Shown: piece after piece, positions 21,129-42,469 of the stretch
Numbering within the stretch: the first letter of the stretch is position 1
Layout: the number at the start of each line of letters is the position of its first letter
From: Mameliella sp. MMSF_3455
GTDB taxonomy: Bacteria > Pseudomonadota > Alphaproteobacteria > Rhodobacterales > Rhodobacteraceae
Direction of reading: 5' to 3'
DNA length: 48,409 nucleotides
Assembly (NCBI RefSeq): GCF_030733205.1
Contig: NZ_JASHJL010000037.1
Location: 1 to 48,409, forward strand
Translations under genes and position numbers: made by a program
The notes under the pieces: generated by a model
Databases searched by the model: none
What the model was told of the DNA's origin: nothing
The model's input: only the letters and a program-made list of their open reading frames with translations

Positions 21129-22297
21129 GGACCCTCCGGTGCATAGATCGCGACTCCGGTCATGGTCTGGTTGACATGCATCCCGTTGACCTGCTCGCCG
21201 TAGGTGGAAAACCCGGTGACCCTGTGCCGCGACAGCACATCGTCAAGGGGCCGTTTCAACTGCCGTTTTTCTGCCTCTATCCGGCGCAGAACGCAATCGC
21301 AGGCCAGGATTGCCTCGGGCTTTTGGGTCCGTGACAGTTCGCTCAGCTGCTGGTCCAGGTGATCGACGATATGGGCCGCATCGGCCAGGGTCAGCACAAG
21401 GCCCTCGTCGATGGCGGAAAAGAATTCCAGCGCGCCGCTCTCGGTCACGCGCTTGATGGCGCGGACATGGTGACTGCCGCCCAGGCGCACGACCATCGGG
21501 CTGTCGGCAAAGGTGAAGGTGTCGATCTGGTGCGGGTCCTTGCCCAGCAGTCGCCCAAGCTCCAGTGCTGCCGGTTCGGCGTTGATTTCGTGCACCAGCC
21601 GGCGTGACGGATCCGCGCGTGTCACCACCATGCGCAGGTCGGTGGGGGTGAAATGGTTGACGCTGAACACGCGCAACCGACAGGTGCTGCGCACCAGGGC
21701 CATGACAGCCGCCTTTTCGTGGCAGACGCCGTTCAGGGCGACGAAGGTATGTTCGAACCGCACGCCGTCCCCGGCAGATCCGCCGAAAAGCTGCGTCGGC
21801 CCCAGCCCGGCGGTCAGGGACGAGGCCAGCCGGTCTTCCTGCATCGACAGCCCGTCGACCATGAGAAAAGCGAATTCCTCGGTCATCTCGGGGGCGCGGG
21901 CACCCAGGTCGGCGCGGGCGCGGATGGTGCGCTGGGTCATCTCGTGGCTGGGCAGGTTTTCCAGGTCCTCGTACAGCAGGACCTCGGCCTCGAAACAGCG
22001 CTGGGGCAGGGCCATTGCCACCACCTGGTTCTCGACATAGCCAGCGCCCATCGCGATCTCTCCGGCGGTGGTGCAGGCCATGACCGGGGCATCGCCCAGT
22101 CTGGACTGCAGGCCTGTTACCAGCGTCTGGAATGGTGTCGCGGGGCTGCAAAAGATCATCACGACGGCAAAGGGGCCGTTGCCCAGCCCGTCGGCAAGCT
22201 GGTCGATCAGGTCGGGTGCGTCGCAATCGGCGCGGGCTGTCCGCAGAACGGCGTCTTTGTCGACACCCCCCTCGGACGGAGAGGCTGCTCCGTCCAT
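21113..22297 (-). CDS. FIST domain sensory protein (FIST_N plus FIST_C)
   Basis: The 394-residue protein matches the FIST sensory family: the amino-terminal half (FAVVMIFCSPATPFQTLVTGLQSRLG, VMACTTAGEIAMGAGYVENQVVAMAL, LFGGSAGDGVRFEHTFV) and the carboxy-terminal half (LRMVVTRADPSRRLVHEINAEPAALEL, PEAILACDCVLRRIEAE, GFSTYGEQVNGMHVNQTMTGVAIY). Such domains are thought to bind small molecules and to signal to partner kinases or cyclases. There is no signal peptide, so sensing would be cytoplasmic. The ATG at 22295-22297 has a strong GGGGAGGAGAAC leader. It is the middle gene of a regulator-FIST-kinase operon and overlaps the kinase start, which suggests the two act as a complex. Confidence 0.9.
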   Translation of the reverse strand: MDGAASPSEGGVDKDAVLRTARADCDAPDLIDQLADGLGNGPFAVVMIFCSPATPFQTLVTGLQSRLGDAPVMACTTAGEIAMGAGYVENQVVAMALPQRCFEAEVLLYEDLENLPSHEMTQRTIRARADLGARAPEMTEEFAFLMVDGLSMQEDRLASSLTAGLGPTQLFGGSAGDGVRFEHTFVALNGVCHEKAAVMALVRSTCRLRVFSVNHFTPTDLRMVVTRADPSRRLVHEINAEPAALELGRLLGKDPHQIDTFTFADSPMVVRLGGSHHVRAIKRVTESGALEFFSAIDEGLVLTLADAAHIVDHLDQQLSELSRTQKPEAILACDCVLRRIEAEKRQLKRPLDDVLSRHRVTGFSTYGEQVNGMHVNQTMTGVAIYAPEGPCRET

Positions 22298-22329: not shown

Positions 22330-22353
22330 CCGGACAGATTACGGAGTGTCCGG
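22330..22353. repeat. Intercistronic hairpin spanning the response-regulator stop
   Basis: CCGGACA (22330-22336) and TGTCCGG (22347-22353) form a seven-pair stem with a ten-base loop; the TAA stop of the response regulator (22339-22341) lies in the loop. There is no T-tract on the minus strand, so this is more likely an mRNA processing or stability element that sets the ratio of regulator to FIST/kinase than a full terminator. Confidence 0.35.
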
Positions 22354-23037
22354 CTGTCTTGGCAAGAGGTTCGAAAAGCTGGCCTCGCCCGCGATCAGCA
22401 CGGCCTGGGTGCGGCTCTGGACACCCAGCTTGCGCATGATGGCGGTGACATGCGCCTTGACGGTGGTTTCCGCGATCGACAGGTCATAGGCGATCTGCTT
22501 GTTCAGCTTGCCTTCGCAGATCAGTTGCAGGATGCGCGCCTGCTGGTTGGTCAGCGTCGACAGTCGCGACACCGCGTCGTCCCCGGACTCTGCCGGCTGC
22601 CCGGCATCGCCCACGTCGACGAACCCCTCGGGGACAAAAACCTCGTCCCGGGCCAGCGCGTCGAAGGCCTGGCGAAAGACTCCGCGCTGGCTGTGCTTGG
22701 GCACGAACCCCTTGGCGCCCGCGCGCATCACCGATGTCACCATCCGGTTGTCCGCCATCGACGAGACGACGACCACGGGGATCCCCCCGGCGGCGGTCTT
22801 GAGGCGGATCAGCCCGTCCAGCCCGTTCACGTCCGGCAGGTTGAGGTCCAACACGATGACATCCGGTTCCGCGCCTTCGCCCAGGGCGTCCAGCGCATCC
22901 TCAAGCAGGCTGGCAGTTTCGATCTCCTCGATCCCGGCCACGGTCTTGAGCGTCATGGCCAGCGCGTCGCAGAACAGCGGATGATCGTCCACGATCAGCG
23001 CAGAGGCGAAATGCCGTTGATGATCCGTATCGGGCAA
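22339..23037 (-). CDS. LuxR/NarL family response regulator
   Basis: This two-domain regulator has a receiver (ALIVDDHPLFCDALAMTLK; phospho-Asp in VIVLDLNLPDVNG; VVVVSSM; the GAKGFVPK lysine) and a LuxR-type helix-turn-helix (LTNQQARILQLICEGKLNKQIAYDL, TVKAHVTAIMRKLGVQSRTQAV). I place the start at the TTG at 23035-23037, because GGGGAGGAGAAC stands five bases before it and the same leader precedes the FIST start. An ATG at 23050-23052 would put this Shine-Dalgarno sequence inside the gene. The receiver is close in style to AgmR/ErbR-like regulators that control quinoprotein alcohol oxidation in other bacteria; this is by resemblance only. It is the first gene of the operon with the FIST protein and hybrid kinase and is probably their target. 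Confidence 0.9.
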   Translation of the reverse strand: MPDTDHQRHFASALIVDDHPLFCDALAMTLKTVAGIEEIETASLLEDALDALGEGAEPDVIVLDLNLPDVNGLDGLIRLKTAAGGIPVVVVSSMADNRMVTSVMRAGAKGFVPKHSQRGVFRQAFDALARDEVFVPEGFVDVGDAGQPAESGDDAVSRLSTLTNQQARILQLICEGKLNKQIAYDLSIAETTVKAHVTAIMRKLGVQSRTQAVLIAGEASFSNLLPRQPDTP

Positions 23038-23184
23038 CGTTCTCCTCCCCATTGAACGCCGGTCTCTTGGTATACCTTACGATCCTAGCAAAGCGCCAGA
23101 GCCTCGGCACCTGTGCTAAGGTCTTAGGAGGATGTGCAGACGGCATGACCAGGGTCACGCCGTCAGATGGTCCTGCGTGCCGGT

Positions 23185-27212: not shown

Positions 27213-28979
27213 TTACTGCAGGCTGGCCAGTTCCTTGGGCAGCTTGAAGGTCCAGACGGTGCCGCCCTGGTTGAGGTAGTTCACCTTCTTGGCAACCTCG
27301 CCACCCCAGAGCGGAACAGCCCCGCCCCAGCCGGAGACGATCGAGACATATTGCTCGCCGTCCATCTCCCAGGTCACGGGTTGGCCCACGATGCCCGAGC
27401 CGGTCTGGAACTCCCAGAGAACTTCGCCGGTCTCGTCATCCAATGCGATGAACAGGCCCTCGGGCGTGCCGGTGAAGACAAGGCCGCCGCCGGTGGTCAT
27501 CACGCCACCCCAAAGCGGTGCGTCGTTCTTGTATTCCCAGACCAGGTCGCCGGTATCCGGATCGATCGCCTTGAGCGAGCCGATGTGATCCTCGTAGTTC
27601 GGCTTGATGGTGAATCCTGCACCCAGGTAGGCCGCGCCCTTCTTGTAGGTGATCGGCTCATTCCAGATATCCATGCCCCATTCGTTGGAGGGCACGTAGA
27701 AGTTGCCGGTCTTCTGGCTGAAGGCCATCGGCATCCAGTTCTTGCCGCCAAGGAACGACGGCGAGGCAAAGATTACTTCACCCTTCTTGCCGTCTGCGGC
27801 CGCGCTGGGATCGCCGGGACGGTTGGCCTCGTTGAAGATCGGGCGGCCGTTCTCGTCGATGCCGTTGGCCCAGGTGATGTCCTTGACGAAGGGCGTGGCC
27901 GAGATGAATCCGCCGTCTTCGGCGTCCAGAACATAGAAATAGCCGTTCCGGTCGGCTGTGGCGAGGCGCATGTTGCCGTCGCGGTCGTTGTAGGCGACCA
28001 CTTCATTAACGCCGTCATAATCCCAGCCTTCGCGCGGGGTGGTCTGGAAGTGCCACTTGATCTCGCCGGTCTTGGGGTCGATGCCGATGCGGCTTGCGGC
28101 ATAGAGGTTGTCGCCCGAACCGTCGTTCTTTTGCCCGGCGTCGCGCAGCCAGCTGTTCCACGGTGCCGGGTTGCCCGCGCCAAAGATCAGCGTATCGGTG
28201 CGGGCGTCATAAGAGCCGCCCAGCCAGGTGGCGCCGCCGCCGGTTTTCCACATGTCGCCCGGCCAGGTCGCGTTCAGCTCTCCGGTCATGGTCGAGGGTT
28301 CGCCGTTCAGCATGCCCATGTGGCCTTCGATCACGGGACGTTCCCAGACCAGGTCGCCGTTCTCGACGTTGCGGGCCTGCACGGTGCCGACGATACCGAA
28401 TTCACCGCCCGAGTTGCCGGTGATGACCAGCCCGTCGACGATCAGCGGTGCGGCAGTGTAGGAATAGCCGGCCTTGTAATCGGCGATCTTGTCGCGCCAG
28501 ACGACATCGCCGGTATCCTTGTTCAGCGCCACGATGCGCGCGTCCAGCGTGCCGAAGATGATCATGTCGCCATAGATCGCGGCCCCCCGGTTGACCACGT
28601 CACAGCAGGGCAGGATTCCCTCGGGCAGGCGGGCGTCGTACTGCCACAGTTCGCGACCGGTCTTCAGGTCGATGGCATAAAGCCGCGAATAGGAGCCGGT
28701 GACATACATCACGCCGTCGTAGATGATCGGCTGGGCTTCCTGACCGCGCTGCTTTTCACCACCAAAGCTGAAGGCCCAGGCCGCCTGCAGGAACTTGACG
28801 TTGTCCTTGTTCAGCGTGTCCAGCGGGCTGTACCGCTGCAGGTGGCGGCCCATGCCGTTGGTCACGACCTGCGTCGTGATGGTCTGGTCGTCGGCCAGGT
28901 CGGCCTCTGTCACTTCTGCCGTGGCGGCTGTGCCGGTCAGCAGGATGCTGGCAGCGGCTGCCAGAATGAATCGGTTCAT
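27213..28979 (-). CDS. PQQ-dependent alcohol dehydrogenase, predicted lanthanide-dependent (ExaF/PedH type)
   Basis: This periplasmic quinoprotein oxidises primary alcohols and passes electrons to a cytochrome c. The 588-residue protein has a signal peptide (to about residue 21) and an eight-bladed propeller with repeated tryptophan-docking motifs. Seen residues: the adjacent-Cys disulfide Cys125-Cys126 ([11 protein letters not shown]), metal ligands Glu193 (GGEFG) and Asn270 (GAGNPAPWN), and catalytic Asp320 followed by Tyr321 and Asp322 in GWDYDGVN. An Asp two residues after the catalytic Asp marks lanthanide-dependent enzymes, whereas calcium enzymes have Ala or Ser there. The start [21 protein letters not shown] is closer to ethanol-type (ExaF/PedH) than to XoxF. 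The ATG at 28977-28979 follows GGGAGGAAATCTC. It belongs to the large quinoprotein island; no PQQ synthesis gene is nearby. Confidence 0.93.
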
Positions 28980-29479
28980 GAGATTTCCTCCCTTCATCGC
29001 CCAGGCGACGTGGATACACGCGCCCCTCTCCCGGACGCCGCCAACAGTATTCAGGGAAGCCGCGTGGCGAGGTATTGCACAATGGTCGTACGACCGTGGC
29101 GCGGTTGACAGGATCCCGGAAACATGACCCGCACAGGGTCGGCCAAGGTCCCGCAGATCCCGCTGACACCAAGACCAAGGGCGGCGCCGCGGGCCGCGCT
29201 TTCGTTCCGCGATGGGGCAGGGATCAATCCCGAAGTCGCGCCGCCGTCCCGGGTGGTGATGCTGCCGATCACGGGCAAATACCATCCGCTGCATTGATCG
29301 TATTCCTGCGCCTGCGTGGGCTTGTCATGGTCAGGACCACGGCATCAGGCCGTCCTCGAACGTGCCGCGGGGCAGTTGCCACGGAACATCCCGGCTCGCC
29401 CGGCCCCCCGAAGGGGCGAGACCCGAGGCCGCAAGGGGTCCTCCTCGATCCGGCGCTTTGCGGGATGACCGGCGCAGGT
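28980..29479. other. 500-bp gene-free leader of the quinoprotein dehydrogenase
   Basis: This is the only stretch over 300 bases without a convincing gene. Open frames in it have no ribosome binding site and no family-like sequence, and I see no pqqA-like short gene. It holds a perfect 12-base palindrome at 29084-29095, a GACCTTGGCC on the minus strand (29141-29150) related to motifs in the other island promoters, and a seven-pair hairpin CTCGCCC/GGGCGAG (29395-29401 with 29414-29420) 60 bases after the Sel1 gene. It is most likely a long, regulated promoter region. Confidence 0.5.
29084..29095. promoter_or_regulatory. Perfect palindrome GGTCGTACGACC before the PQQ alcohol dehydrogenase
   Basis: This twelve-base perfect palindrome lies about 105 bases upstream of the dehydrogenase ATG. 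Read on the minus strand it continues as TACGACCATTG; a near copy, TACGACCATAG, occurs at 41607-41617 upstream of the SoxYZ-like gene. It is a candidate activator or repressor site for the island. Confidence 0.45.
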
Positions 29480-30016
29480 TCAGAAGAGCGGCGCGTATTT
29501 CCAGTTGTCCGCGTCGGGAGTAACCTCGTCCAGGTCATAGTTCGCATCCTGAAGCCGCCGGGCCACGGGCAGTCCCGCCTGTGCGGCGCGATCCACCATC
29601 GCCCGGCCCGCGGCCTCGTCCCGGGCGACGCCGTGCCCGCGGATCAGCGCCAGACCGTAGTTGAACTGGCCCACCGGATCGCCCGCCTCGGCGGCCCGTC
29701 GGTCCCATTCGGCGGCGGCATCGGGGTCATAGTCGCCGCCGAGGCCGTTATTCTGCAACTGGCCCATCCAGGTCATCGCGGCCGTGTAGCCGCCCTTTTC
29801 GGCACAGAGCCGAAAGATCTCGCGTGCGTCGGCGTGATCGCCCTTCTTGGTGAAGTGATAGCCAGAGGCGCAGGTGGTCATGTCGGCCTGTCCGCGACGG
29901 ATGTTGTCGATCACCCGGTCCATGCCCATCTCGGGCGGGTTGAGGGTGCCCAGGTCTTCCTCGGCCAAGGCGGGTGCGGCAATCGCGGTGCAGATCGCCA
30001 GGACGGTCATGCGCAT
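29480..30016 (-). CDS. Periplasmic Sel1-repeat protein of the quinoprotein island
   Basis: The 178-residue protein has a signal peptide (MRMTVLAICTAIAAPALAEED, cleavage near residue 18) and then Sel1/TPR-like helical repeats: AREIFRLCAEKGGYTAAMTWMGQLQNNGLGG, DPDAAAEWDRRAAEAGDPVGQFNYGLALIRGHGV and DEAAGRAMVDRAAQAGLPVARRL. Such repeats make protein-protein contacts. Two Cys (in TTCASGY and FRLCAEK) could form a disulfide in the periplasm. I start at the ATG at 30014-30016 with GAAAGGAGAATGCC upstream. It lies between the beta-propeller gene and the dehydrogenase, all leftward, so it may help assemble or dock the quinoprotein; this is inference from position. Confidence 0.8.
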   Translation of the reverse strand: MRMTVLAICTAIAAPALAEEDLGTLNPPEMGMDRVIDNIRRGQADMTTCASGYHFTKKGDHADAREIFRLCAEKGGYTAAMTWMGQLQNNGLGGDYDPDAAAEWDRRAAEAGDPVGQFNYGLALIRGHGVARDEAAGRAMVDRAAQAGLPVARRLQDANYDLDEVTPDADNWKYAPLF

Positions 30017-30107
30017 GGCATTCTCCTTTCGCGGCATCGCGACGGGATCCACCGCGATGCGACTAATCTAGCGTGTCGGGCCGGAGCGACCAACTGCAAG
30101 CTGCGGG

Positions 30108-32327: not shown

Positions 32328-32421
32328 GCGGTTCCGCGTGGCTTGGGACTTAGGTCCAATAGCTTCGGTGCGAGACGGCCCCCTAAGAAAAGGGCAATCT
32401 CACCGAGGAGGAAACACGCAC

Positions 32422-33105
32422 ATGACCCGCAAGACCACTGCACTGAGCCTGGCCTTGATGTTCGGCGCCACGATGGCGCTGTCGCATGGGGACGTTGCCC
32501 CGCAGCCCGTCAATACCGACGCCCTGCCCGATGTGGGCGAGGAATGGCTGATCGAGAACCCCTACCGCGACCAGGGAGACGAGGTCTACTGGACGGCCGT
32601 CGAGATCGGCGCATCCGGTTACAACCAGAACTGCGCACGCTGCCACGGGCTTGAGGTGATCTCGGGCGGGCTGGCACCCGATCTGCGCTTTCTCGAGGCC
32701 GAGGAGTACGGCGACGAATGGTACATGGAACGGTTCATCCACGGTTACACCCAGAACGGCACCACCAAGATGCCGGCCTTTGGCGAGCTCCTGGGCCAGA
32801 AGGCGGCCTGGGCGATCCGCACCTATATCGAGGCGCGCCCCGACGATGAGCAGATGGCGGAACTGACGCCCGAGCTGAAGGTCCTGCGCGATCAGCTGGC
32901 CGCCTGGTCCGAGGATGCCTCGGGCGCCGATCCGGATGCCATGAAGGCCAAGCTGGACGAGATCGCGTCCGGCATCGAGACGCTCAGCGGCGCGCCCGTG
33001 GCCGACAGCGCGGCCTACCGGGCGTCGGCGCTGATCGACGGCACCGCCGAGGGTTATCGCAAGGCGGCCGAGGCGTTGACCATCGGCCTGTCGGCGGCGC
33101 ACTGA
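32422..33105 (+). CDS. pedF: Cytochrome c-550 PedF, electron acceptor of the quinoprotein dehydrogenase
   Basis: The 227-residue periplasmic cytochrome has a signal peptide (to about ALS-HGD, residue 21), a heme c attachment site CARCH at 71-75 and an axial Met in TKMPAFGE (Met117). Segments NPYRDQGDEVYWTAVEIGASGYNQNC and GLAPDLRFL match PedF/c550 of quinoprotein ethanol dehydrogenases. After residue 150 it carries a further helical region of about 75 residues without a heme site. It probably takes electrons from the dehydrogenase and delivers them to the terminal oxidase. The ATG at 32422 has GAGGAGGAAAC upstream. It heads the rightward operon, with the binding-protein gene one base behind it. 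Confidence 0.92.
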   Translation: MTRKTTALSLALMFGATMALSHGDVAPQPVNTDALPDVGEEWLIENPYRDQGDEVYWTAVEIGASGYNQNCARCHGLEVISGGLAPDLRFLEAEEYGDEWYMERFIHGYTQNGTTKMPAFGELLGQKAAWAIRTYIEARPDDEQMAELTPELKVLRDQLAAWSEDASGADPDAMKAKLDEIASGIETLSGAPVADSAAYRASALIDGTAEGYRKAAEALTIGLSAAH

Positions 33106-33106
33106 C

Positions 33107-34012
33107 ATGATTGCAGCGCGCCCCTTGCTGAAACTGTGCCTGGTGGCCGGCCTTTGGGCCGGCATCGCGGGCGCCGTCGAGGCGCGCTGCGAGGACTGGG
33201 TGCCGCAACCGAAACCCCAGAACGCCAGTCGCGACATTGTTGGTCAGGACATCGACCAGATCATGGAGCGCGGCTGGATCGAATTTGCCGTCTACGAGGA
33301 TTACCCGCCCTATTCCTACGAAGAAAACGGCAAGCCGCGTGGTGTCGACATCGAGATCGGGCGCCTGATCGCCGAGGATCTCGGTGTCGCACCGCGCTTC
33401 AAGTTCGTGTCGGCGGGTGAGAACCTGGACGCCGACTTGCGCAACTACCTGTGGAAGGGGCCGGTGGTGGGCGGTGCCGTGTCCAACGTGATGCTGCGCG
33501 TGCCTTATGACAGTGCCTTTACCTGCCGCGTGGAGCAGGTGGCCTTTACCGGCCAGTACCAGACCGAGGGGATCGCCATAGCCTATGACAAGGCGGCCTA
33601 CCCCGAGGAAAAACCCGTTCCGGCCTATTTCCGCTTTGATACGGTGGCGGTGGAAAACGACTCGATTGCCGATTTCTACCTGACCTCGCTGGCGGGCGGT
33701 CAACTAAATGCCAATATCCGGCGATTCCCGACCACCGCGGAGGCAATGGCGGCGCTGGCGGCGGGCGAGGTGAAGGCGGCGATGGGTCCGATGGCCCAGC
33801 TGGAATACGGCCTGACAGAGGACCTGGCCGTGCACCAGCCGCCCTTGCCGGGCTTCTCTGTGGGCAAGTGGACCATCGGATTGGGTGTAAATTTCCGTTA
33901 TCGCCCGCTAGGTTACGCGGTGGACGATGCGATCTACGCGGCGCTCGACGATGGGCGCATCGCGGCGATTTTCGAAAGCTACGGGTTGAGTTTCACGCCA
34001 CCTGAGCGTTGA
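33107..34012 (+). CDS. Quinoprotein dehydrogenase-associated periplasmic binding protein (XoxJ/MoxJ-like)
   Basis: The 301-residue protein has a signal peptide (to about residue 25) and a type II binding-protein fold: IEFAVYEDYPPYSYEENGKPRGVDIEIGRLIAEDLG, GAVSNVMLRVPYD, FTGQYQTEGIAIAYD, and the switch back through FDTVAVENDSIADFYLTSL and AAGEVKAAMGPMAQLEYGL. It matches the XoxJ/MoxJ-type proteins that accompany methanol and alcohol quinoproteins and may activate or load the dehydrogenase with cofactor or metal. It is one base from pedF, which implies tight co-expression. It is not next to any permease. Confidence 0.9.
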   Translation: MIAARPLLKLCLVAGLWAGIAGAVEARCEDWVPQPKPQNASRDIVGQDIDQIMERGWIEFAVYEDYPPYSYEENGKPRGVDIEIGRLIAEDLGVAPRFKFVSAGENLDADLRNYLWKGPVVGGAVSNVMLRVPYDSAFTCRVEQVAFTGQYQTEGIAIAYDKAAYPEEKPVPAYFRFDTVAVENDSIADFYLTSLAGGQLNANIRRFPTTAEAMAALAAGEVKAAMGPMAQLEYGLTEDLAVHQPPLPGFSVGKWTIGLGVNFRYRPLGYAVDDAIYAALDDGRIAAIFESYGLSFTPPER

Positions 34013-34079
34013 GTGACCCGTAGGGAGCACAGGAACGAGGCAGCCCACGGGCGTCCGTCAGAAGGAAGAGGGTTGAGAG

Positions 34080-34607
34080 ATGCAGATGAGTGACAGCCGC
34101 GAGATCGCGGCCCCCCGCGACGTGGTATGGCAAGCGATCCTCGATCCCGAGGTTCTGAAGGCCTGCGTGCCCGGTTGCACCGAGATGACAGGATCGGCGG
34201 AGGAAGGCTTTGAGGCGACCGTGGTGCAGAAGGTCGGCCCGGTGAAGGCGACCTTCAAGGGCCAGGTCACGCTGGCCGACATGGACAAGCCGAACTCTGT
34301 CACGCTGAACGGCGAAGGCAAGGGCGGCGCCGCCGGGTTCGCCAAGGGCGGCGCCAAGGTCGACCTGGAAGAGACCGCGGACGGCGGCACCCTGCTCAGC
34401 TACGAGGTCGAAGCCAAGGTCGGCGGCAAGCTGGCGCAGCTGGGCAGCCGGATCATCGACGGTTTCGCCAAGAAGATGGCCGACCAGTTTTTCCAGAACT
34501 TCCAGGACGCGGTCGAGGGCCCGTCCGATCCGGACGACGCGGAACCCGGCGCGGATGGCGACGAGAACCACAAGAAAGGCTGGTTCAAGCGGCTCGTGAA
34601 GGGCTGA
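34080..34607 (+). CDS. coxG: CoxG family protein (carbon monoxide dehydrogenase subunit G-like)
   Basis: The 175-residue protein is a START/SRPBCC-fold member of the CoxG group: [74 protein letters not shown] and [36 protein letters not shown]. In carboxydotrophs CoxG is membrane-bound and anchors the dehydrogenase; the basic, aromatic tail [11 protein letters not shown] here could do the same. The start has GAAGGAAGAGG upstream. It opens a run coxG-coxS-coxL-coxM that follows pedF and the XoxJ-like gene in the same direction. Confidence 0.93.
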
Positions 34608-34659
34608 ACCGGCGACATCGAGATACCCAGACACGACATTTTATCCAGGGAGGATAGCG

Positions 34660-35145
<486 letters not shown>

Positions 35146-35230
35146 ATTGACCCCGTGGCAGGATGACCTGCCGCGCAACCGATTTCCGCAAGGTGGGTCA
35201 TCGGCCCATCGACTCTAGGGAGGAATCCAC

Positions 35231-37600
<2,370 letters not shown>

Positions 37601-37606
37601 TCCCTG

Positions 37607-37634
37607 CCCCCGGCCCTGCATCCAGGGCCGGGGG
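37607..37634 (+). repeat. 12-bp perfect hairpin between coxL and coxM
   Basis: CCCCCGGCCCTG (37607-37618) pairs perfectly with CAGGGCCGGGGG (37623-37634) around a four-base loop. It begins six bases after the coxL stop. No T-run follows, and an AGGAGG site and the coxM ATG come directly after. It is better explained as an RNA processing, 3'-stabilising or attenuation element than as a full terminator. Confidence 0.75.
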
Positions 37635-37655
37635 AGATCAACAGGAGGATAAGAG

Positions 37656-38447
37656 ATGTATTCATTCGACATGGTACGGCCCACCAGCGTGGCCGATGCG
37701 GTTTCGGCCCTGGGCCAGGACGAGGCGCAGGCCCTTGGCGGCGGCCAGACCCTGATCCCGACCCTGAAACAGCGCCTGGCGATGCCGTCCGTGCTGGTCA
37801 GCCTGTCCGGCATCGACGAGTTGAAGGGCGTCTGCCGCGAGGACAACGGCGACCTGTCCATCGGCGGTGGCACCACCCATGCCACCGTCGCGGCCGAAGC
37901 GGCGGCGCACTACCCTGGTCTGGCCAGCCTCGCCGGCGGCATCGGGGATCCGGCGGTCCGCAACCGCGGTACCATCGGCGGATCGCTGGCCAACAACGAC
38001 CCTTCCGCCTGCTACCCGGCGGCGGCGCTGGGTTCGGGGGCGACCATCGTGACCAACACCCGCGAGATCGCGGCGGACGACTATTTCCAGGGCATGTTCA
38101 CCACCGCCCTCGAAGAGGGTGAGATCATCACCTCGGTCCGTTTCCCGGTGCCGGAGGCGGCCGGTTACGCCAAGTTTGAACAGCCCGCATCGCGCTTTGC
38201 GCTGACGGCTGTCTACGTGGCCAAATACGCCGACGGCGTGCGTGTCGCGGTCACGGGCGCGTCGGAAAACGGCGTCTTCCGCTGGACCGAGGCGGAACAG
38301 GCGCTGTCGTCCAACTTCTCGCCTGACGCTGTAGCCGGCCTGTCGGTGCCCGCCGATGGCATGATCTCGGACCTGCACGGCACGGCGGCCTATCGTGCCC
38401 ACCTGGTTGGCGTGATGACCAAGCGTGCGGTTGCCGCGGCCAGCTGA
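37656..38447 (+). CDS. coxM: Molybdenum hydroxylase medium subunit, FAD-binding (CoxM-like)
   Basis: The 263-residue protein is the flavin subunit: it begins MYSFDMVRPTSVADAVSAL and has the two FAD motifs LGGGQTLIP and TIGGSLANNDPSACYPAAAL (the CO dehydrogenase-type TIGGxxANNDP motif), with GTIGG at about residue 108. LEEGEIITSVRFPVP and KFEQPASRFALTAVYVA complete the family pattern. It is slightly shorter than classic CoxM (about 285). The ATG at 37656 follows AACAGGAGGATAAGAG. It receives electrons from CoxS; the onward acceptor is unknown. It ends the operon, with a strong terminator 20 bases on. Confidence 0.95.
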   Translation: MYSFDMVRPTSVADAVSALGQDEAQALGGGQTLIPTLKQRLAMPSVLVSLSGIDELKGVCREDNGDLSIGGGTTHATVAAEAAAHYPGLASLAGGIGDPAVRNRGTIGGSLANNDPSACYPAAALGSGATIVTNTREIAADDYFQGMFTTALEEGEIITSVRFPVPEAAGYAKFEQPASRFALTAVYVAKYADGVRVAVTGASENGVFRWTEAEQALSSNFSPDAVAGLSVPADGMISDLHGTAAYRAHLVGVMTKRAVAAAS

Positions 38448-38466
38448 GCCAGCTGCAACACTTTCG

Positions 38467-38495
38467 AACCCCCGGTCCTTGGCCGGGGGTTTTTT
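38467..38495 (+). terminator. Rho-independent terminator after coxM
   Basis: A CCCCCGG/CCGGGGG stem (38469-38475 with 38483-38489) with a seven-base loop is followed by six T (38490-38495); two A before the stem allow two more pairs. It lies 20 bases after the coxM stop and ends the pedF-to-coxM transcript. Confidence 0.9.
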
Positions 38496-38569: not shown

Positions 38570-39457
38570 CTACACCGTCCGCAGGTTGCCCTCGGCATCG
38601 ACCAGCAGCACCCGGATCTCCCCGGGCGCCTCTGCCTTGACCCGCTGCACCTCTGCTTGGTCGGCAAAGACCAGCGCCGTGGACAACCCGTCGGCCAACG
38701 CGGCAGAGCCTGCCTCGACGCTCACCGTCGACCAGCGCGGTGCGGCCTCTTCCAGCGGGTCCAGGATATGGCCCATGTCGCCCAGCATCAGGGCCGAGGG
38801 GCTGGAGGTCGCTATGGCCCGGTTCGTCAGATCGCGCGTCGTGACAAGGCCCGCGTCGGGATCCAGGATCCCGACCGTCCACGGACCGCCCAGCCCGCGC
38901 ATCTCACCGATCTGCACCAGCGCGTTTTCAAAGCCGTGTTCCTCCAGCACCCCGGTCACCAGGTCGGTGGCAAAGCCCTGTGCGACGCCGTTCAGGGTCA
39001 GGGCCTGACCCGGCGCCAGTGCGATCCGGTCGGTAGAGGCGCGGACGCGCTGCCAGCCGATGGCCTGCCGTGCCGCCGTGGCGTCGCCGCCACGAGCCAG
39101 CGCCTGCCAAAGCGGCTGCACTGTCGGGTCAAACCGGCCCCGCGTCATCCGGTGCAGCTCGCCCACCAGTCCCATTAGAAAATGCATGTTCGGCGAGGGC
39201 CGGACCAGAACACCGTCTCGATTCAGCCGGGACAGGGCCGACGCGGGATCGTACAGGCTGAACTCCGCCTCGATCTCTTGCAGCAGGGTGGTGCAGGCGG
39301 TCAATGCGGCCTCGGTCCACCCGGCCGGGCCGTGCAGCGTGATCGACACCTCGGCGCCCAGCGCCTGCCCGGTCCAGCGCCGTTCTTCGGCGGCCAGCCT
39401 CCGGGGGGCAAGCGTCATCGCCGCGCTGATGCTCAGGAAACGCCGCCGGGATATCAT
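38570..39457 (-). CDS. apbE: FAD:protein FMN transferase (ApbE/NosX-like)
   Basis: ApbE attaches FMN covalently to a Thr or Ser of exported flavoproteins. The 295-residue protein starts with a Tat-type signal (MISRRRFLSISAAMTLA) and has EIEAEFSLYDPASALSRLN, FDPTVQPLWQA, GQALTLNGVAQGFATDLV with the flavin-binding NGVAQG motif, ENALVQIGEMRGLG and the metal-site segment AIATSSPSALMLGDMGHILDP. The ATG overlaps the stop of the NosR-like gene (ATGA), so the two are coupled. The partner has a fitting acceptor motif, which makes it the likely substrate. Family members in denitrifiers are called NosX. It is exported and works in the periplasm. Confidence 0.93.
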   Translation of the reverse strand: MISRRRFLSISAAMTLAPRRLAAEERRWTGQALGAEVSITLHGPAGWTEAALTACTTLLQEIEAEFSLYDPASALSRLNRDGVLVRPSPNMHFLMGLVGELHRMTRGRFDPTVQPLWQALARGGDATAARQAIGWQRVRASTDRIALAPGQALTLNGVAQGFATDLVTGVLEEHGFENALVQIGEMRGLGGPWTVGILDPDAGLVTTRDLTNRAIATSSPSALMLGDMGHILDPLEEAAPRWSTVSVEAGSAALADGLSTALVFADQAEVQRVKAEAPGEIRVLLVDAEGNLRTV

Positions 39458-41523
39458 GCCGCCCTCTTCCTTTCGCGCGCCTTCAGCACCAATGGCACGC
39501 ATTGCGCGGTATCGTCATGGATCTTCACGCAATCGAGGCAACCAAAGCACTCGGTATAGTCGATCTGGCCCGATCTTGGTATCGCCTGATACTTGCACCG
39601 GACGGAACATAGCTGACAGGGGCTGCCGCATTCCGCCCGTCGCGCGATCCAGTCGCGCCCCCGCAGCAACCCGGCCAATGCAATCAGTGCGCCCAGCGGA
39701 CAAAGATAGCGGCAGAACCCCTTGAAGATGAGCGCAGACAGCACCAGCAAGCCCACCGCATAGGCCACATAGTACCATTCGCGGATGAAATAGGTGGTCA
39801 CGGCGGTCTTGAAGGGCTCCACCTCTGCCGCCGTGTCCAGCGCACCGGGGGCCACGAAAACCAGCGCCACCAGACCCGCCAGTACAAGGTATTTCACCCG
39901 TTTCAGCCGGCTGTCCCAGCGTGCGGGCACCGTCACCTCGGGCAGGCGCAGCAATCGGCCAAGGTGATGGGCAAATTCCTGCATGGCCCCAAACGGACAC
40001 AGCCAGCCACAGAACAGCGCCCGCCCCCAGAGGACAAACCCGAGGATCGCCGCCGCCCAGACAAGCAGCGAAAACGGATCGTAGAGGAGAAAGGCGTAAC
40101 TTCCGCCCTCCCAGGCGGTTCGGATCACCCCGATCACCGTCACGATGGACAGTTGTCCCTGTCCCCACCAGCCGACAAAGCCCGTCATGACCGCAAGGAT
40201 GCCCAGCCGAACCGGCGTGAACATGGTCAGCCCGGCCAGAGCGGACTGCCGCCAGAACAGCACCGGCAAAAGCACCGCCAGCCCCAGCGCCAGGGCGATC
40301 AGGTCCGCCTGCCGCTCGCGCAGCGCCGCCCGCCAGGGAGGCAGCGAGCGGGGCGCCTCGGCGCGGGCAAAGAACCGGGCGTCCGTCGACTGGGTCGAGG
40401 AGAGCGTCACGCTACCCACCTGCGGCATGAAGGAGCCGTGTTCGCGTACCGCCTCGACATGCAGGGTCCAGGGTTCTGTCGGGTCAAAGCCCAGCCGCCG
40501 GTCGGTGCGCAGGATCATTGCCGTGCCCTCTTGAAGGGCGTCAGGCAAGTCGTCGCGCAGGGAAAACAGCAAGTCGCTGTCGCGCAGGGCCACCGGCAGG
40601 CCGAATTGCTCCGCGCTGACAAGGTCGGGCGCGGTGTTGCGCACGAACTCCTCCGTGATCAGCCCATGCCGCCCGGTCTCGACCAACAGGATCGGTTCGG
40701 CATGGTCCGAAATCGTCAGGAAAGCCTGCAATTCGGCCAGTGAGTCCGCGTCCAGCACCGCCCGAGCGATCGAGGGCGGGCCGATATCCACGATCCAGAG
40801 ATCCAGGTAGGCGCCGTCGGGATCGTCCTGTGCCACCGGATCGTCATCTTCCCAGAGCGTTCCGGCAAAGGCGGCGTTCACCTCGGCATTGCTCACACGG
40901 TGGCGGGTCGCCAGCCCCTGCGCCACAAGGTCGTCCCAGGTCAGGGCCTCATCCACCGCGAGATCGGGGTAGGCGGGCGGGCCGTTGGACACGCCCTGCA
41001 TCTTTTCCCGCGCCACCTGCAAGGTCGCGGCAAGGATGGATTCATGCGCGATCCGCACGCTGGCCGTCGCCTTTGTCACCCCGTCCAGGTAGACCAGCGC
41101 GCTGCTGCCCTGAGTTTCGCCATAGGGGGTTCCGACGACCATAGGCGCAGAGATCGAATGCCCCCGGTATTGGGTAAAGAACTGTTCAAAGGCGGCCTGC
41201 CCCAGACCAGAGACGAAAATCGGCTCGTTATGGTCAAGCAGCTGGACATCGACGAACCGGCCTTCGAGGTCCAGCATCACCAGGACGTTGATCGCGGCAC
41301 CGGAAAAGCCGGGCAGGGGGGCCAGGGGCTCGGTCTCGAAAACGTAGCCGGCGGTCTGTCCGCCCGCGTTTTCCAGCGTCCAGACACCCTTGTCGTTGAC
41401 CGGCTCGCCCAGAAGAAAGGGGGGGATGACCCGTTCTGCCAGCGCCTCGCGGCTCAGCATCTCTGCCCGGACGGTGCCGGTCAGCAGGCAGAAACAGGCC
41501 AGGATGCAGAGGATCGCGCGCAT
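39454..41523 (-). CDS. NosR/NirI-like membrane flavo-iron-sulfur protein
   Basis: The 689-residue protein has a signal peptide (to about residue 20), a periplasmic FMN-binding domain, a long periplasmic spacer, about five to six membrane helices and a carboxy-terminal iron-sulfur part. The flavin acceptor motif is DGVTKAT with Thr153. The membrane part carries two Cys-Pro motifs, CGWLCPFGA and CRYLCPLGA, and the end has CGSPCQLCSVRCKY and CFGCLDCVK, fitting two [4Fe-4S] clusters. This is the NosR/NirI architecture, which moves electrons across the membrane to periplasmic enzymes. No nos gene is near; the setting is a quinoprotein island, where similar proteins recur. It is coupled to apbE. 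Confidence 0.92.
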   Translation of the reverse strand: MRAILCILACFCLLTGTVRAEMLSREALAERVIPPFLLGEPVNDKGVWTLENAGGQTAGYVFETEPLAPLPGFSGAAINVLVMLDLEGRFVDVQLLDHNEPIFVSGLGQAAFEQFFTQYRGHSISAPMVVGTPYGETQGSSALVYLDGVTKATASVRIAHESILAATLQVAREKMQGVSNGPPAYPDLAVDEALTWDDLVAQGLATRHRVSNAEVNAAFAGTLWEDDDPVAQDDPDGAYLDLWIVDIGPPSIARAVLDADSLAELQAFLTISDHAEPILLVETGRHGLITEEFVRNTAPDLVSAEQFGLPVALRDSDLLFSLRDDLPDALQEGTAMILRTDRRLGFDPTEPWTLHVEAVREHGSFMPQVGSVTLSSTQSTDARFFARAEAPRSLPPWRAALRERQADLIALALGLAVLLPVLFWRQSALAGLTMFTPVRLGILAVMTGFVGWWGQGQLSIVTVIGVIRTAWEGGSYAFLLYDPFSLLVWAAAILGFVLWGRALFCGWLCPFGAMQEFAHHLGRLLRLPEVTVPARWDSRLKRVKYLVLAGLVALVFVAPGALDTAAEVEPFKTAVTTYFIREWYYVAYAVGLLVLSALIFKGFCRYLCPLGALIALAGLLRGRDWIARRAECGSPCQLCSVRCKYQAIPRSGQIDYTECFGCLDCVKIHDDTAQCVPLVLKARERKRAA

Positions 41524-41562
41524 GGACGAGACCCTAGGCCCGGCCCGGGCGCGTCCCTATGC

Positions 41563-41572
41563 GACCTTGGTC
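41563..41572. promoter_or_regulatory. GACCTTGGTC inverted repeat in the NosR-like/SoxYZ-like divergent promoter region
   Basis: This is the second exact copy of the ten-base element at 32318-32327. On the minus strand the flank reads GGACCAAGGTCGC, against GGACCTTGGTCGC at the pedF site, so eleven of thirteen bases agree. It lies 40 bases upstream of the NosR-like gene. TACGACCATAG follows at 41607-41617 on the side of the SoxYZ-like gene. Confidence 0.45.
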
Positions 41573-41683
41573 CCATGAGGCGGGCCTGACGCAATGGTGA
41601 TGCATCTACGACCATAGGCGAAGTGATCCGCCCGCACCCGCCATGCTAGCCTTGCCGCCATGGTACGACAGGGAGGGTCCGCC

Positions 41684-42469
41684 ATGTTCATCCGCACCGC
41701 ATTCGCCGCGCTGATCGCCGTTGCAGGCAGCGCCGCCGCCGCTCTCGACGATCCGCAGACCGTGCTGCAGGATCCGATGGGATCGGGCATGTGGAACTAC
41801 CACCAGAAGGGACTGCTGGGCGATCCCGCCGACATCCGTTTCGACGACCGGGTCGTGGTGCGCGCGCCGGACTCGGCCGAGGACAGCCTGAACGTCCCGC
41901 TGCTGGTGGATGCGACCGCGATCCCCGACGTGAAACGTATCGTTGTCAGCGCCGATTATGGCCCGATCCCCCATATCCTGACCTACTATCCCGAACAGGC
42001 CGCGCCCAAGCTGGCCCTGCGGTTCAAGATCGACCAGGCGACCGCCATTCGTGCCAGCGTCGAGACGCATTCCGGCAGCTGGCACATCGGGTCGACCTAT
42101 ATCGACGCGGCGGGCGGCGGCTGTACCGCACCTGCCCATGCCTATGCCAGCGACGACTGGGAGGAAAAGCTGGGTGAGGTGCACGGGCGGCTGTGGTCGG
42201 CTTCGGGCCGCGCGCGGCTGGTGGTGGATCACCCGATGGACACCGGGCTGGCCGATGGCATCCCCGTCTTCATCATCGAGGACCTGTCCCTGCAGGACGA
42301 GGACGGCACGCCGCTGGCGCGTCTGGAACTGCATGAGCCTGTGAACGAGGACCCTGCCTTTACCTTCTATTTCGATGCGGGAGCATTGCCCGCCTCGGTA
42401 AAGGTCATGGGCCGCGACAACAACGGCAACCGCATCCGCGGTGTCCTGACCGAGGGCGAGCTGAACTGA
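41684..42469 (+). CDS. Quinoprotein dehydrogenase-associated SoxYZ-like carrier protein
   Basis: The 261-residue protein has a signal peptide (MFIRTAFAALIAVAGSAAAA) and then a SoxY-like domain fused to a SoxZ-like domain. The SoxY part (RFDDRVVVRAPDSAEDSLNVPLLVDAT ... RIVVSADYGPIPHILTYYP) ends in AGGGCTAP, where Cys147 would be the carrier residue. The SoxZ part has VDHPMDTGLADGIPVFIIEDLSLQDEDG and DPAFTFYFDAGALPASVKVMGRDNNGN. In sulfur oxidation SoxYZ holds sulfur intermediates on the SoxY Cys; fused versions linked to quinoproteins are a known group with unknown cargo. The ATG at 41684 follows GGGAGGGTCCGCC. It overlaps the metallohydrolase gene by one base. Confidence 0.9.
   Translation: MFIRTAFAALIAVAGSAAAALDDPQTVLQDPMGSGMWNYHQKGLLGDPADIRFDDRVVVRAPDSAEDSLNVPLLVDATAIPDVKRIVVSADYGPIPHILTYYPEQAAPKLALRFKIDQATAIRASVETHSGSWHIGSTYIDAAGGGCTAPAHAYASDDWEEKLGEVHGRLWSASGRARLVVDHPMDTGLADGIPVFIIEDLSLQDEDGTPLARLELHEPVNEDPAFTFYFDAGALPASVKVMGRDNNGNRIRGVLTEGELN

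What the first reader, a model, noticed from the sequence alone, without database searches (positions are those of the whole stretch)
32422..38447. Form II CODH-like molybdenum hydroxylase embedded in an alcohol-oxidation operon
pedF, the XoxJ-like gene and coxG-S-L-M run in one direction with short gaps and one terminator after coxM. CoxL has AYRGAGR, not the form I AYxCSFR, so CO is an unlikely substrate. Form II enzymes have no agreed function. Placement behind a quinoprotein's cytochrome points to oxidation of the aldehyde made by the dehydrogenase, a possible role for this orphan enzyme class.
Basis: partly seen in the sequence, partly recalled or inferred. Interest (0 to 1): 0.7.

Follow-up and report, generated by a model that had tools for sequence, protein, structure and literature searches.

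The report
CODH-like enzyme in an alcohol-oxidation regulon
In many marine relatives of Ruegeria, a molybdenum enzyme often labelled carbon monoxide dehydrogenase carries the same DNA control site as the machinery that oxidises alcohols, so it probably burns the aldehydes that this machinery makes.

Summary
The genes are as described: pedF, a XoxJ/PedG-like gene, coxG-S-L-M and a terminator, beside a PedH-type PQQ alcohol dehydrogenase. CoxL has AYRGAGR, as in all 101 sequences read.

The neighbourhood alone is weak evidence. CoxL orthologues are in 104 of 149 same-family genomes and PedF in 31. Co-occurrence is chance level (p=0.38), and 10 of 24 genomes with both show the linkage.

Stronger evidence is a ~20-bp motif learned only from coxG upstreams at loci without pedF. 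It reappears before pedF (28/31), PQQADH (17/24) and nosR (15/19), against 0/30 xoxJ and 3/100 coxM. It follows a NosP-NahK-regulator trio: 25/37 loci versus 4/64. In one genome the slot behind pedF-xoxJ holds ExaC, a predicted acetaldehyde dehydrogenase, with the same motif.

Best reading: a quinone-linked aldehyde dehydrogenase of the alcohol regulon; the substrate is inferred. In the window's own lineage coxG lacks the motif and probably depends on the pedF promoter. The role is not general: 60 of 101 loci lack both motif and trio.

The parts
18894..21128 (-). hybrid sensor kinase of the NahK/ErcS family (PAS_7, HisKA, HATPase, receiver)
   Evidence: Pfam; NCBIfam NF041832 344 bits (cut-off 400) and NF041831 398 bits (cut-off 1500)
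21113..22297 (-). NosP-like FIST sensor
   Evidence: PF08495/PF10442; NF041558 NosP 357 bits (cut-off 450)
22339..23052 (-). LuxR-type response regulator, ErdR-like; candidate binder of the motif
   Evidence: Response_reg + GerE; NF041830 161 bits (cut-off 390)
27213..28979 (-). PQQ alcohol dehydrogenase, PedH type, with a D-Y-D motif (lanthanide mark, recalled) and a CC pair
   Evidence: TIGR03075 756 bits (cut-off 480); best PDB match 6zcv/6zcw; start at MNRF and motifs
29071..29090 (+). operator-like site before the PQQ dehydrogenase (score 14.9)
   Evidence: matrix scan
29480..30052 (-). Sel1-repeat protein
   Evidence: PF08238
30108..31136 (-). PQQ-associated beta-propeller protein
   Evidence: TIGR03866 518 bits
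31103..32299 (-). PQQ-associated ABC substrate-binding protein
   Evidence: TIGR03863 495 bits
32344..32363 (-). operator-like site in the divergent region before pedF (score 17.7)
32422..33105 (+). pedF, cytochrome c-550
   Evidence: TIGR04494 191 bits (cut-off 122)
33107..34012 (+). XoxJ/PedG-like periplasmic binding protein
   Evidence: SBP_bac_3; no specific NCBIfam model; follows pedF in the other loci
34080..34607 (+). coxG, membrane anchor / quinone carrier (role from literature)
   Evidence: PF06240 116 bits
34660..35145 (+). coxS, 2x[2Fe-2S] subunit
35231..37600 (+). coxL, molybdenum subunit, form II (AYRGAGR)
37607..37634 (+). strong 12-bp hairpin between coxL and coxM, no U-run
   Evidence: a run of 8 or more paired bases in 50 of 77 coxL-coxM gaps
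37656..38447 (+). coxM, FAD subunit
   Evidence: PF00941
38466..38492 (+). intrinsic terminator
38570..39502 (-). ApbE-like flavin transferase; marks the far edge of the cox insert
   Evidence: PF02424; directly after xoxJ in 11 pedF loci without cox
39454..41523 (-). NosR-like membrane flavo/iron-sulfur protein
   Evidence: NF046105 443 bits (cut-off 1000)
41556..41575 (+). operator-like site between nosR-like and soxYZ-like genes (score 18.4)
41603..41622 (+). second operator-like site in the same region (score 14.8)
41660..42469 (+). SoxYZ-like carrier of quinoprotein systems
   Evidence: TIGR04557 210 bits
42469..43410 (+). quinoprotein relay zinc metallohydrolase 1
   Evidence: TIGR04558 393 bits

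Best explanation
coxGSLM encodes a cytoplasmic molybdenum hydroxylase that oxidises the aldehyde released by the periplasmic PedH-type PQQ alcohol dehydrogenase to the acid, passing electrons through CoxS and CoxM to CoxG and ubiquinone, while the first oxidation drains through PedF. It belongs to one regulon with the alcohol genes, switched by a NosP-NahK-LuxR regulator trio acting on a ~20-bp near-palindromic operator. Shown by computation: gene order, form II signature, the shared motif, its dependence on the trio, the ExaC exchange in one genome. Inferred: that the motif is an operator, the regulator that binds it, the aldehyde substrate, the electron route. In the window itself coxG has no such site of its own, so the genes should ride on the pedF promoter.
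For: Motif trained on 38 coxG upstreams at loci without pedF nearby; hits at p<=0.01 before pedF 28/31, PQQADH 17/24, nosR 15/19, PQQ-linked coxG 7/10; controls xoxJ 0/30, coxS of coxG loci 0/48, coxM 3/100, xdhC 1/40, moxR 1/31. The site follows the trio: 25/37 vs 4/64 loci, p=7e-11; coxG loci alone 23/29 vs 2/19, p=4e-6; genomes without PQQADH 13/17 vs 4/64, p=1e-8; independent pairs on the CoxL tree 8.2 for, 0.2 against, 4.7 undecided, median p 0.008 (38 of these loci trained the motif, without regard to the trio). Second set: linked coxG 22/26, other coxG 18/22, loci without coxG 2/27. NosP is in 30 of 30 PQQADH genomes and within 12 kb of CoxL at 15 of 49 places. ExaC (922 bits, cut-off 900) in the same slot with two sites of the motif. 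Best NCBIfam match of all three subunits is glyceraldehyde dehydrogenase, below the cut-offs. CoxG is described as a quinone carrier (PMC13240472) or membrane anchor (PMC11962113) (passages).
Against: No co-occurrence of CoxL with PQQADH (23 vs 20.9 expected, p=0.50) or PedF (24 vs 21.6, p=0.38). 64 of 101 loci are in genomes without the trio; 60 of those lack the motif. For loci that begin with coxS the motif-trio link is not significant (2/8 vs 2/45, p=0.10), nor in the 20 extra coxG genes (4/10 vs 0/10, p=0.087). The window's own coxG has no site (score 1.1). The ExaC exchange is one genome. Some controls exceed the 1% expected (sel1 4/22, apbE 3/19, coxS without coxG 4/53). The ped review says NosP/PedS1 may answer to NO rather than alcohols. 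The authors of the R. pomeroyi study (PMC10041152, passages) read weak coxL-1 fitness effects (-0.17, -0.23) as CO use.
Confidence: 0.6

Rival explanations
1. The cox genes are co-regulated with alcohol oxidation but act on another compound: the shared regulator signals a general state (nitric oxide, low oxygen, energy shortage) sensed by NosP-NahK, and both systems are parallel electron sources.
For: NosP is named for nitric oxide sensing, and the ped review leaves open that it answers to NO rather than alcohols. The motif stays with the cox genes in genomes without PQQADH (13/17 with the trio). NosR-like genes carry the motif (15/19).
Against: ExaC, a predicted acetaldehyde dehydrogenase, takes the same slot and motif in one genome. 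The nearest curated family of each subunit is an aldehyde enzyme.
Confidence: 0.22
2. A true CO dehydrogenase: a scavenging enzyme for CO, as its annotation says.
For: Annotated as CO dehydrogenase in R. pomeroyi (SPO1519), where the authors read mutant fitness as CO use; the two best matches among solved structures are CO dehydrogenases.
Against: No Cys/Phe of the form I motif in any of 101 sequences; far below the CODH model cut-off (626 vs 991); the own genome has a separate form I gene (AYRCSFR) with its own helper genes; PMC6794299 says recent studies suggest that CO is not the physiological substrate of form II (passage).
Confidence: 0.05
3. Positional accident: a mobile form II cassette landed behind xoxJ and the motif similarity is hitch-hiking.
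For: Linkage is a minority state and needs at least 4 changes on well supported branches of the CoxL tree; no excess co-occurrence.
Against: pedF, PQQADH and nosR were not in training yet share the motif; the motif depends on the trio even where there is no PQQADH; before coxG it mostly sits near -60 (25 of 31 hits at 54-66 bp, 37 of 40 at 55-66 bp).
Confidence: 0.08

Closest known systems
Form II CO dehydrogenase-like enzymes (CoxSLM; R. pomeroyi SPO1519 coxL-1)
   Same: AYRGAGR signature, S-L-M gene order, CoxG; R. pomeroyi SZCCDBG043 has the same pedF-linked locus with the motif
   Different: Here the genes are tied to alcohol genes by motif and regulator, which I did not see stated in the listings and passages of the papers searched
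ped/exa alcohol-oxidation cluster of Pseudomonas (PMC12997753, passages)
   Same: PedF, XoxJ/PedG-like protein, PedH-type dehydrogenase, PedA1/A2-like proteins, SoxYZ-like and metallohydrolase genes, NosP-NahK-LuxR regulators
   Different: The aldehyde step in Pseudomonas is ascribed to the NAD enzyme PedI/ExaC; here a molybdenum hydroxylase would take the place
Molybdenum glyceraldehyde dehydrogenase (NF041018-020)
   Same: Best curated match of all three subunits
   Different: All below the curated cut-offs
Azospirillum brasilense Sp7 fructose response (PMC11837500, passages)
   Same: CoxS, CoxL, CoxM, MoxR and a molybdate transporter rise together with PQQ synthesis proteins and PQQ-dependent alcohol dehydrogenases
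   Different: Fructose as inducer; the relation of that CoxL to this one was not tested

Membership tests
Form I aerobic CO dehydrogenase | AYxCSFR active-site motif | tested here: not met
   AYRGAGR in 101 of 101 sequences, the window included
Form I aerobic CO dehydrogenase | curated model score | tested here: not met
   TIGR02416 626 bits, cut-off 991
Form II CODH-like molybdenum hydroxylase | AYRGAGR motif and S-L-M order | tested here: met
   motif definition from PMC13240472 passages
Form II CODH-like molybdenum hydroxylase | place in a tree with reference form II sequences | not tested
   no form II reference sequences from the literature were placed in the tree
ped/exa alcohol-oxidation system | PedF and PQQ alcohol dehydrogenase over curated cut-offs | tested here: met
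   TIGR04494 and TIGR03075
ped/exa alcohol-oxidation system | XoxJ/PedG-type binding protein | tested here: inconclusive
   only SBP_bac_3 and weak ABC models; position after pedF fits
NosP-NahK-regulator system | curated NosP, NahK and regulator scores | tested here: not met
   NosP 357/450; NahK 344/400 (subfamily domain) and 398/1500; ErdR 161/390 bits: homologous but below the cut-offs; works-like claim only
Glyceraldehyde dehydrogenase (molybdenum) | curated model scores of three subunits | tested here: not met
   alpha 646/790, beta 188/350, gamma 206/290
Aldehyde dehydrogenase activity | oxidation of aldehydes in vitro | not testable with these tools
   needs purified enzyme

The most novel reading that the evidence does not exclude
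In Rhodobacteraceae that carry a NosP-NahK regulator trio, the orphan form II CODH is the quinone-linked aldehyde dehydrogenase of lanthanide-type alcohol oxidation, an exchangeable alternative to ExaC/PedI under one operator, switched by a nitric-oxide-type sensor; elsewhere in the family the same enzyme serves other aldehyde sources under other control.
Probability: 0.45. Interest if true: 0.85.

Novelty: new variant of a known kind. Interest (0 to 1): 0.72.

Why it matters
Form II CODH genes turn up in ocean and soil surveys while their substrate is unknown. A defined motif, a candidate regulator and an exchange with a predicted acetaldehyde dehydrogenase turn the question into simple tests in Ruegeria pomeroyi. 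If true, part of what is read as marine CO oxidation potential would be oxidation of alcohol-derived aldehydes.

Tried and rejected
Co-occurrence of CoxL with PedF, PQQADH or NosP as evidence: no signal for the first two, mild for NosP (40 vs 33.5, p=0.014). CoxL tree for a single origin of the PQQ linkage: rejected; the label needs 6 changes against the maturation-linked rows and 9 against all rows, and starred branches force at least 4 (quick tree, LG+G4, with a long-branch warning). Linkage outside the family: of 26 non-family genomes with CoxL of 54%+ and a listed PQQ dehydrogenase, three of one family (f49) have them 9.2 kb apart, but there coxL is without coxS/coxM in the 20-kb stretch, among P450 and short-chain dehydrogenase genes: a different context. 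Consensus promoter scan: uninformative. Structure prediction was not run: I expected a model like the known CODHs that would not settle the substrate. Own-genome scan: a strict 18-base pattern found 4 sites in 5.7 Mb, 2 of them in the window, against 1 for the reversed control. The own genome's second PQQ locus has no site above 12.

Limits: NosP is used as marker of the trio, at 44% identity or more; paralogues of 35-42% were left out, so G088 (39%) counts as lacking it although it has the motif. PQQADH counts take the 30 genomes at 77%+ and leave out weaker matches (one search lists 32). Upstream regions begin at the tblastn match start, which can differ from the true start codon. In one search I gave 39 of the listed coxG matches to the distance count, only 52 of the listed PQQADH places (those I judged to be in CoxL genomes). 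One of the 20 extra coxG genes (G147) adjoins coxS. 5 of 80 named loci lacked enough upstream DNA. The 11 named loci treated as repeats of the first survey were matched by me from names and contig sizes; without them the counts are 21/25, 15/18 and 2/23. The motif finder is my own script; its p-values rest on 100 dinucleotide shuffles per sequence.
Full report
What is there. Six genes run in one direction from 32422 to 38447: pedF, a XoxJ/PedG-like binding protein, coxG, coxS, coxL and coxM, with gaps of 1, 67, 52, 85 and 55 nt, closed by a terminator at 38466-38492. PedF is over its curated cut-off, the cox proteins match their Pfam families, and CoxL carries AYRGAGR. Upstream on the other strand lie a TIGR03863 binding protein, a TIGR03866 propeller, a Sel1 protein and a PQQ alcohol dehydrogenase. 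Among solved structures that enzyme is closest to 6zcv/6zcw, a quinoprotein ethanol dehydrogenase that I recall as PedH of Pseudomonas putida (842 bits, against 688 for 1flg, recalled as ExaA). It starts at 28979 and has a D-Y-D motif, which I recall as the mark of lanthanide enzymes. Further on the same strand stand a response regulator, a NosP-like FIST protein and a NahK-family hybrid kinase. Downstream are ApbE, a NosR-like protein, a SoxYZ-like carrier and a metallohydrolase of quinoprotein systems. The nearest named genomes are Mameliella (98-99% in CoxL).

How common is the arrangement. Among 149 genomes of the family, one per genus, a CoxL of 67% identity or more is in 104, and PedF over the cut-off is in 31. 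Both are in 24, where 21.6 are expected (p=0.38). In 10 of those 24, the window's included, coxL starts 2.3-2.5 kb after pedF on the same strand. Of the 31 pedF loci read, these 10 have coxG-S-L-M after xoxJ, with apbE beyond it in 7. Two more (G031, G106) break off in the assembly just after coxG, and one (G078) has coxG without SLM. In 11, the convergent apbE-nosR genes follow xoxJ at once, and in one short contig nosR does; so the cox genes look like an insert between xoxJ and apbE. One has ExaC there, four have unrelated or unclear sequence, and one (G002) is a different kind of locus. In the class sample (289 genomes) PedF is in 8: the window's genome, G399 of the same family, which is linked, and six outside the family. 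Of these six, G176 and G199 have CoxL elsewhere, the CoxL place of G322 was not listed, and three have no CoxL match at E<=1e-180.

Two settings for one enzyme. I read 101 loci including the window (100 fetched stretches). At 48, coxG stands directly before coxS; at 53 it does not. Maturation genes (MoxR, VWA, XdhC-like, MoeA-like; at least two) flank 44 of the 53 but 5 of the 48. PedF flanks 10 of the 48 and none of the 53. The regulator trio (at least two of three) flanks 12 of the 48 and 1 of the 53. The CoxL tree mixes the settings. Ruegeria marina shows both settings in one genome (L199, L201). In the window's genome, form II-type moxR and VWA genes are on another contig (C57), and a separate form I CODH with its own helpers is on C24.

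The regulator trio. All 30 genomes with the PedH-type dehydrogenase (77% identity or more) have the NosP orthologue (44% or more), which occurs in 48 genomes at 49 places. Of these places 21 lie within 12 kb of the dehydrogenase and 15 within 12 kb of CoxL, four counted in both, and 17 near neither. Nine of the eleven near CoxL only are in genomes with no such dehydrogenase. At least 14 of the 49 have coxG within 8 kb (part of the coxG list). According to passages of a 2026 review, the Pseudomonas ped cluster has the same kind of trio (PP_2663 to PP_2665: NO-sensing protein, PedS1, AgmR) and AgmR activates the cluster. The aldehyde enzyme there is PedI, homologous to ExaC, whose own mutants showed no growth defect on short-chain alcohols. 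The review also says the NosP/PedS1 pair may sense NO rather than, or besides, alcohols (PMC12997753).

The motif. I trained a motif on the 250 bp before coxG in the 38 coxG loci without pedF nearby (some of these genomes carry PQQ genes elsewhere) and scored other genes against 100 dinucleotide shuffles each. It reads roughly TAT-N2-GAC-N4-GTC-N-TA. In the training set it is present at p<=0.01 in 12/12 loci beside the trio and 12/26 others. Outside training: pedF 28/31, the binding protein that shares that intergenic region 27/29, PQQADH 17/24, nosR 15/19, soxYZ 1/2, the regulator gene 4/13, and coxG of PQQ-linked loci 7/10. Controls: xoxJ 0/30, NosP 0/10, coxS in coxG loci 0/48, coxS in other loci 4/53, moxR 1/31, xdhC 1/40, coxM 3/100, apbE 3/19, sel1 4/22. 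Of the 31 hits before coxG, 25 are centred 54-66 bp from the start codon.

The motif follows the regulator. Across 101 loci, a site of score 12 or more within 130 bp of the first cox gene is present in 25 of 37 loci whose genome has NosP and in 4 of 64 without (p=7e-11). The coxG loci alone give 23/29 against 2/19 (p=4e-6), the coxS-first loci 2/8 against 2/45 (p=0.10), and genomes without PQQADH 13/17 against 4/64. On the CoxL tree, independent pairs agree 8.2 to 0.2 with 4.7 undecided (median p 0.008, range 0.002-0.125). A test on 20 coxG genes fetched apart gave 4/10 against 0/10, which is not significant (p=0.087). In named loci the site is before coxG in 22 of 26 pedF-linked loci and 18 of 22 others, and before coxS in 2 of 27 loci without coxG, with 5 of the 80 loci not scored. 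R. pomeroyi SZCCDBG043 is among the linked ones (score 18.2 at -61).

The exchange. In G139, whose coxSLM is on another contig beside maturation-type genes (L058), the slot behind pedF-xoxJ holds a protein over the curated cut-off for ExaC, acetaldehyde dehydrogenase (922 against 900), followed by two DUF779 genes. Two sites of the motif (20.7 and 14.1) lie in the gap before it. It is one genome, but it puts a predicted acetaldehyde dehydrogenase in the place of coxGSLM.

The window itself. Sites lie before PQQADH (29071-29090), between pedF and the binding protein (32344-32363) and between nosR-like and soxYZ (41556-41575, 41603-41622), none before coxG. Three Mameliella loci and Antarctobacter share this lack.

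Mechanism. The dehydrogenase makes aldehyde in the periplasm and gives electrons to PedF. The aldehyde enters the cytoplasm and is oxidised by CoxSLM, in whose sequence I see no export signal (by eye). CoxG carries quinone, as proposed for CODH (PMC13240472 passages), or anchors the enzyme, as concluded for an archaeal glycerol-phosphate enzyme, where it was not needed for electron transfer (PMC11962113 passages). The primary paper on CoxG was not held. The regulon membership I hold at about 0.85, the aldehyde substrate at about 0.7 given that.

Literature. In the listings and passages I saw from the searches, no paper links form II CODH to alcohol oxidation or to this motif. I read passages, not whole papers. 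Form II is described as of unresolved activity (PMC13240472) or, on recent studies, not acting on CO physiologically (PMC6794299). In R. pomeroyi, coxL-1 mutants had slightly lower fitness in mixed communities (-0.17, -0.23), read by the authors as CO use (PMC10041152). In Azospirillum, CoxSLM proteins rise together with the PQQ system on fructose (PMC11837500).

Noticed in passing
window 37607-37634: GC-rich 12-bp hairpin between coxL and coxM without a U-run; a run of 8 or more paired bases occurs in 50 of 77 such gaps. It may set the subunit ratio.
   Followed up: partly
L252 (G000 contig C59): The own genome has a second PQQ alcohol dehydrogenase locus with its own regulator trio, SoxYZ-like and propeller genes, but without a motif site above 12.
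   Followed up: partly
L249, L250, L251: In a family of 1.4-Mb genomes (f49) a coxL (54-56%) without coxS/coxM nearby lies 9.2 kb from a PQQ dehydrogenase; in the one locus read by ORF (L251) P450-like, short-chain dehydrogenase and amidohydrolase-like genes lie between (gene names by eye).
   Followed up: partly
L199, L200, L201, L211, L226, L228: In several Ruegeria and Sedimentitalea assemblies contigs break at coxS-coxL, and R. marina shows copies in both settings: near-identical duplicates may collapse in assembly.
   Followed up: no
window 39454-41523: A NosR-like protein next to ApbE carries the motif (15 of 19 upstream regions); its role in alcohol oxidation is unclear.
   Followed up: no
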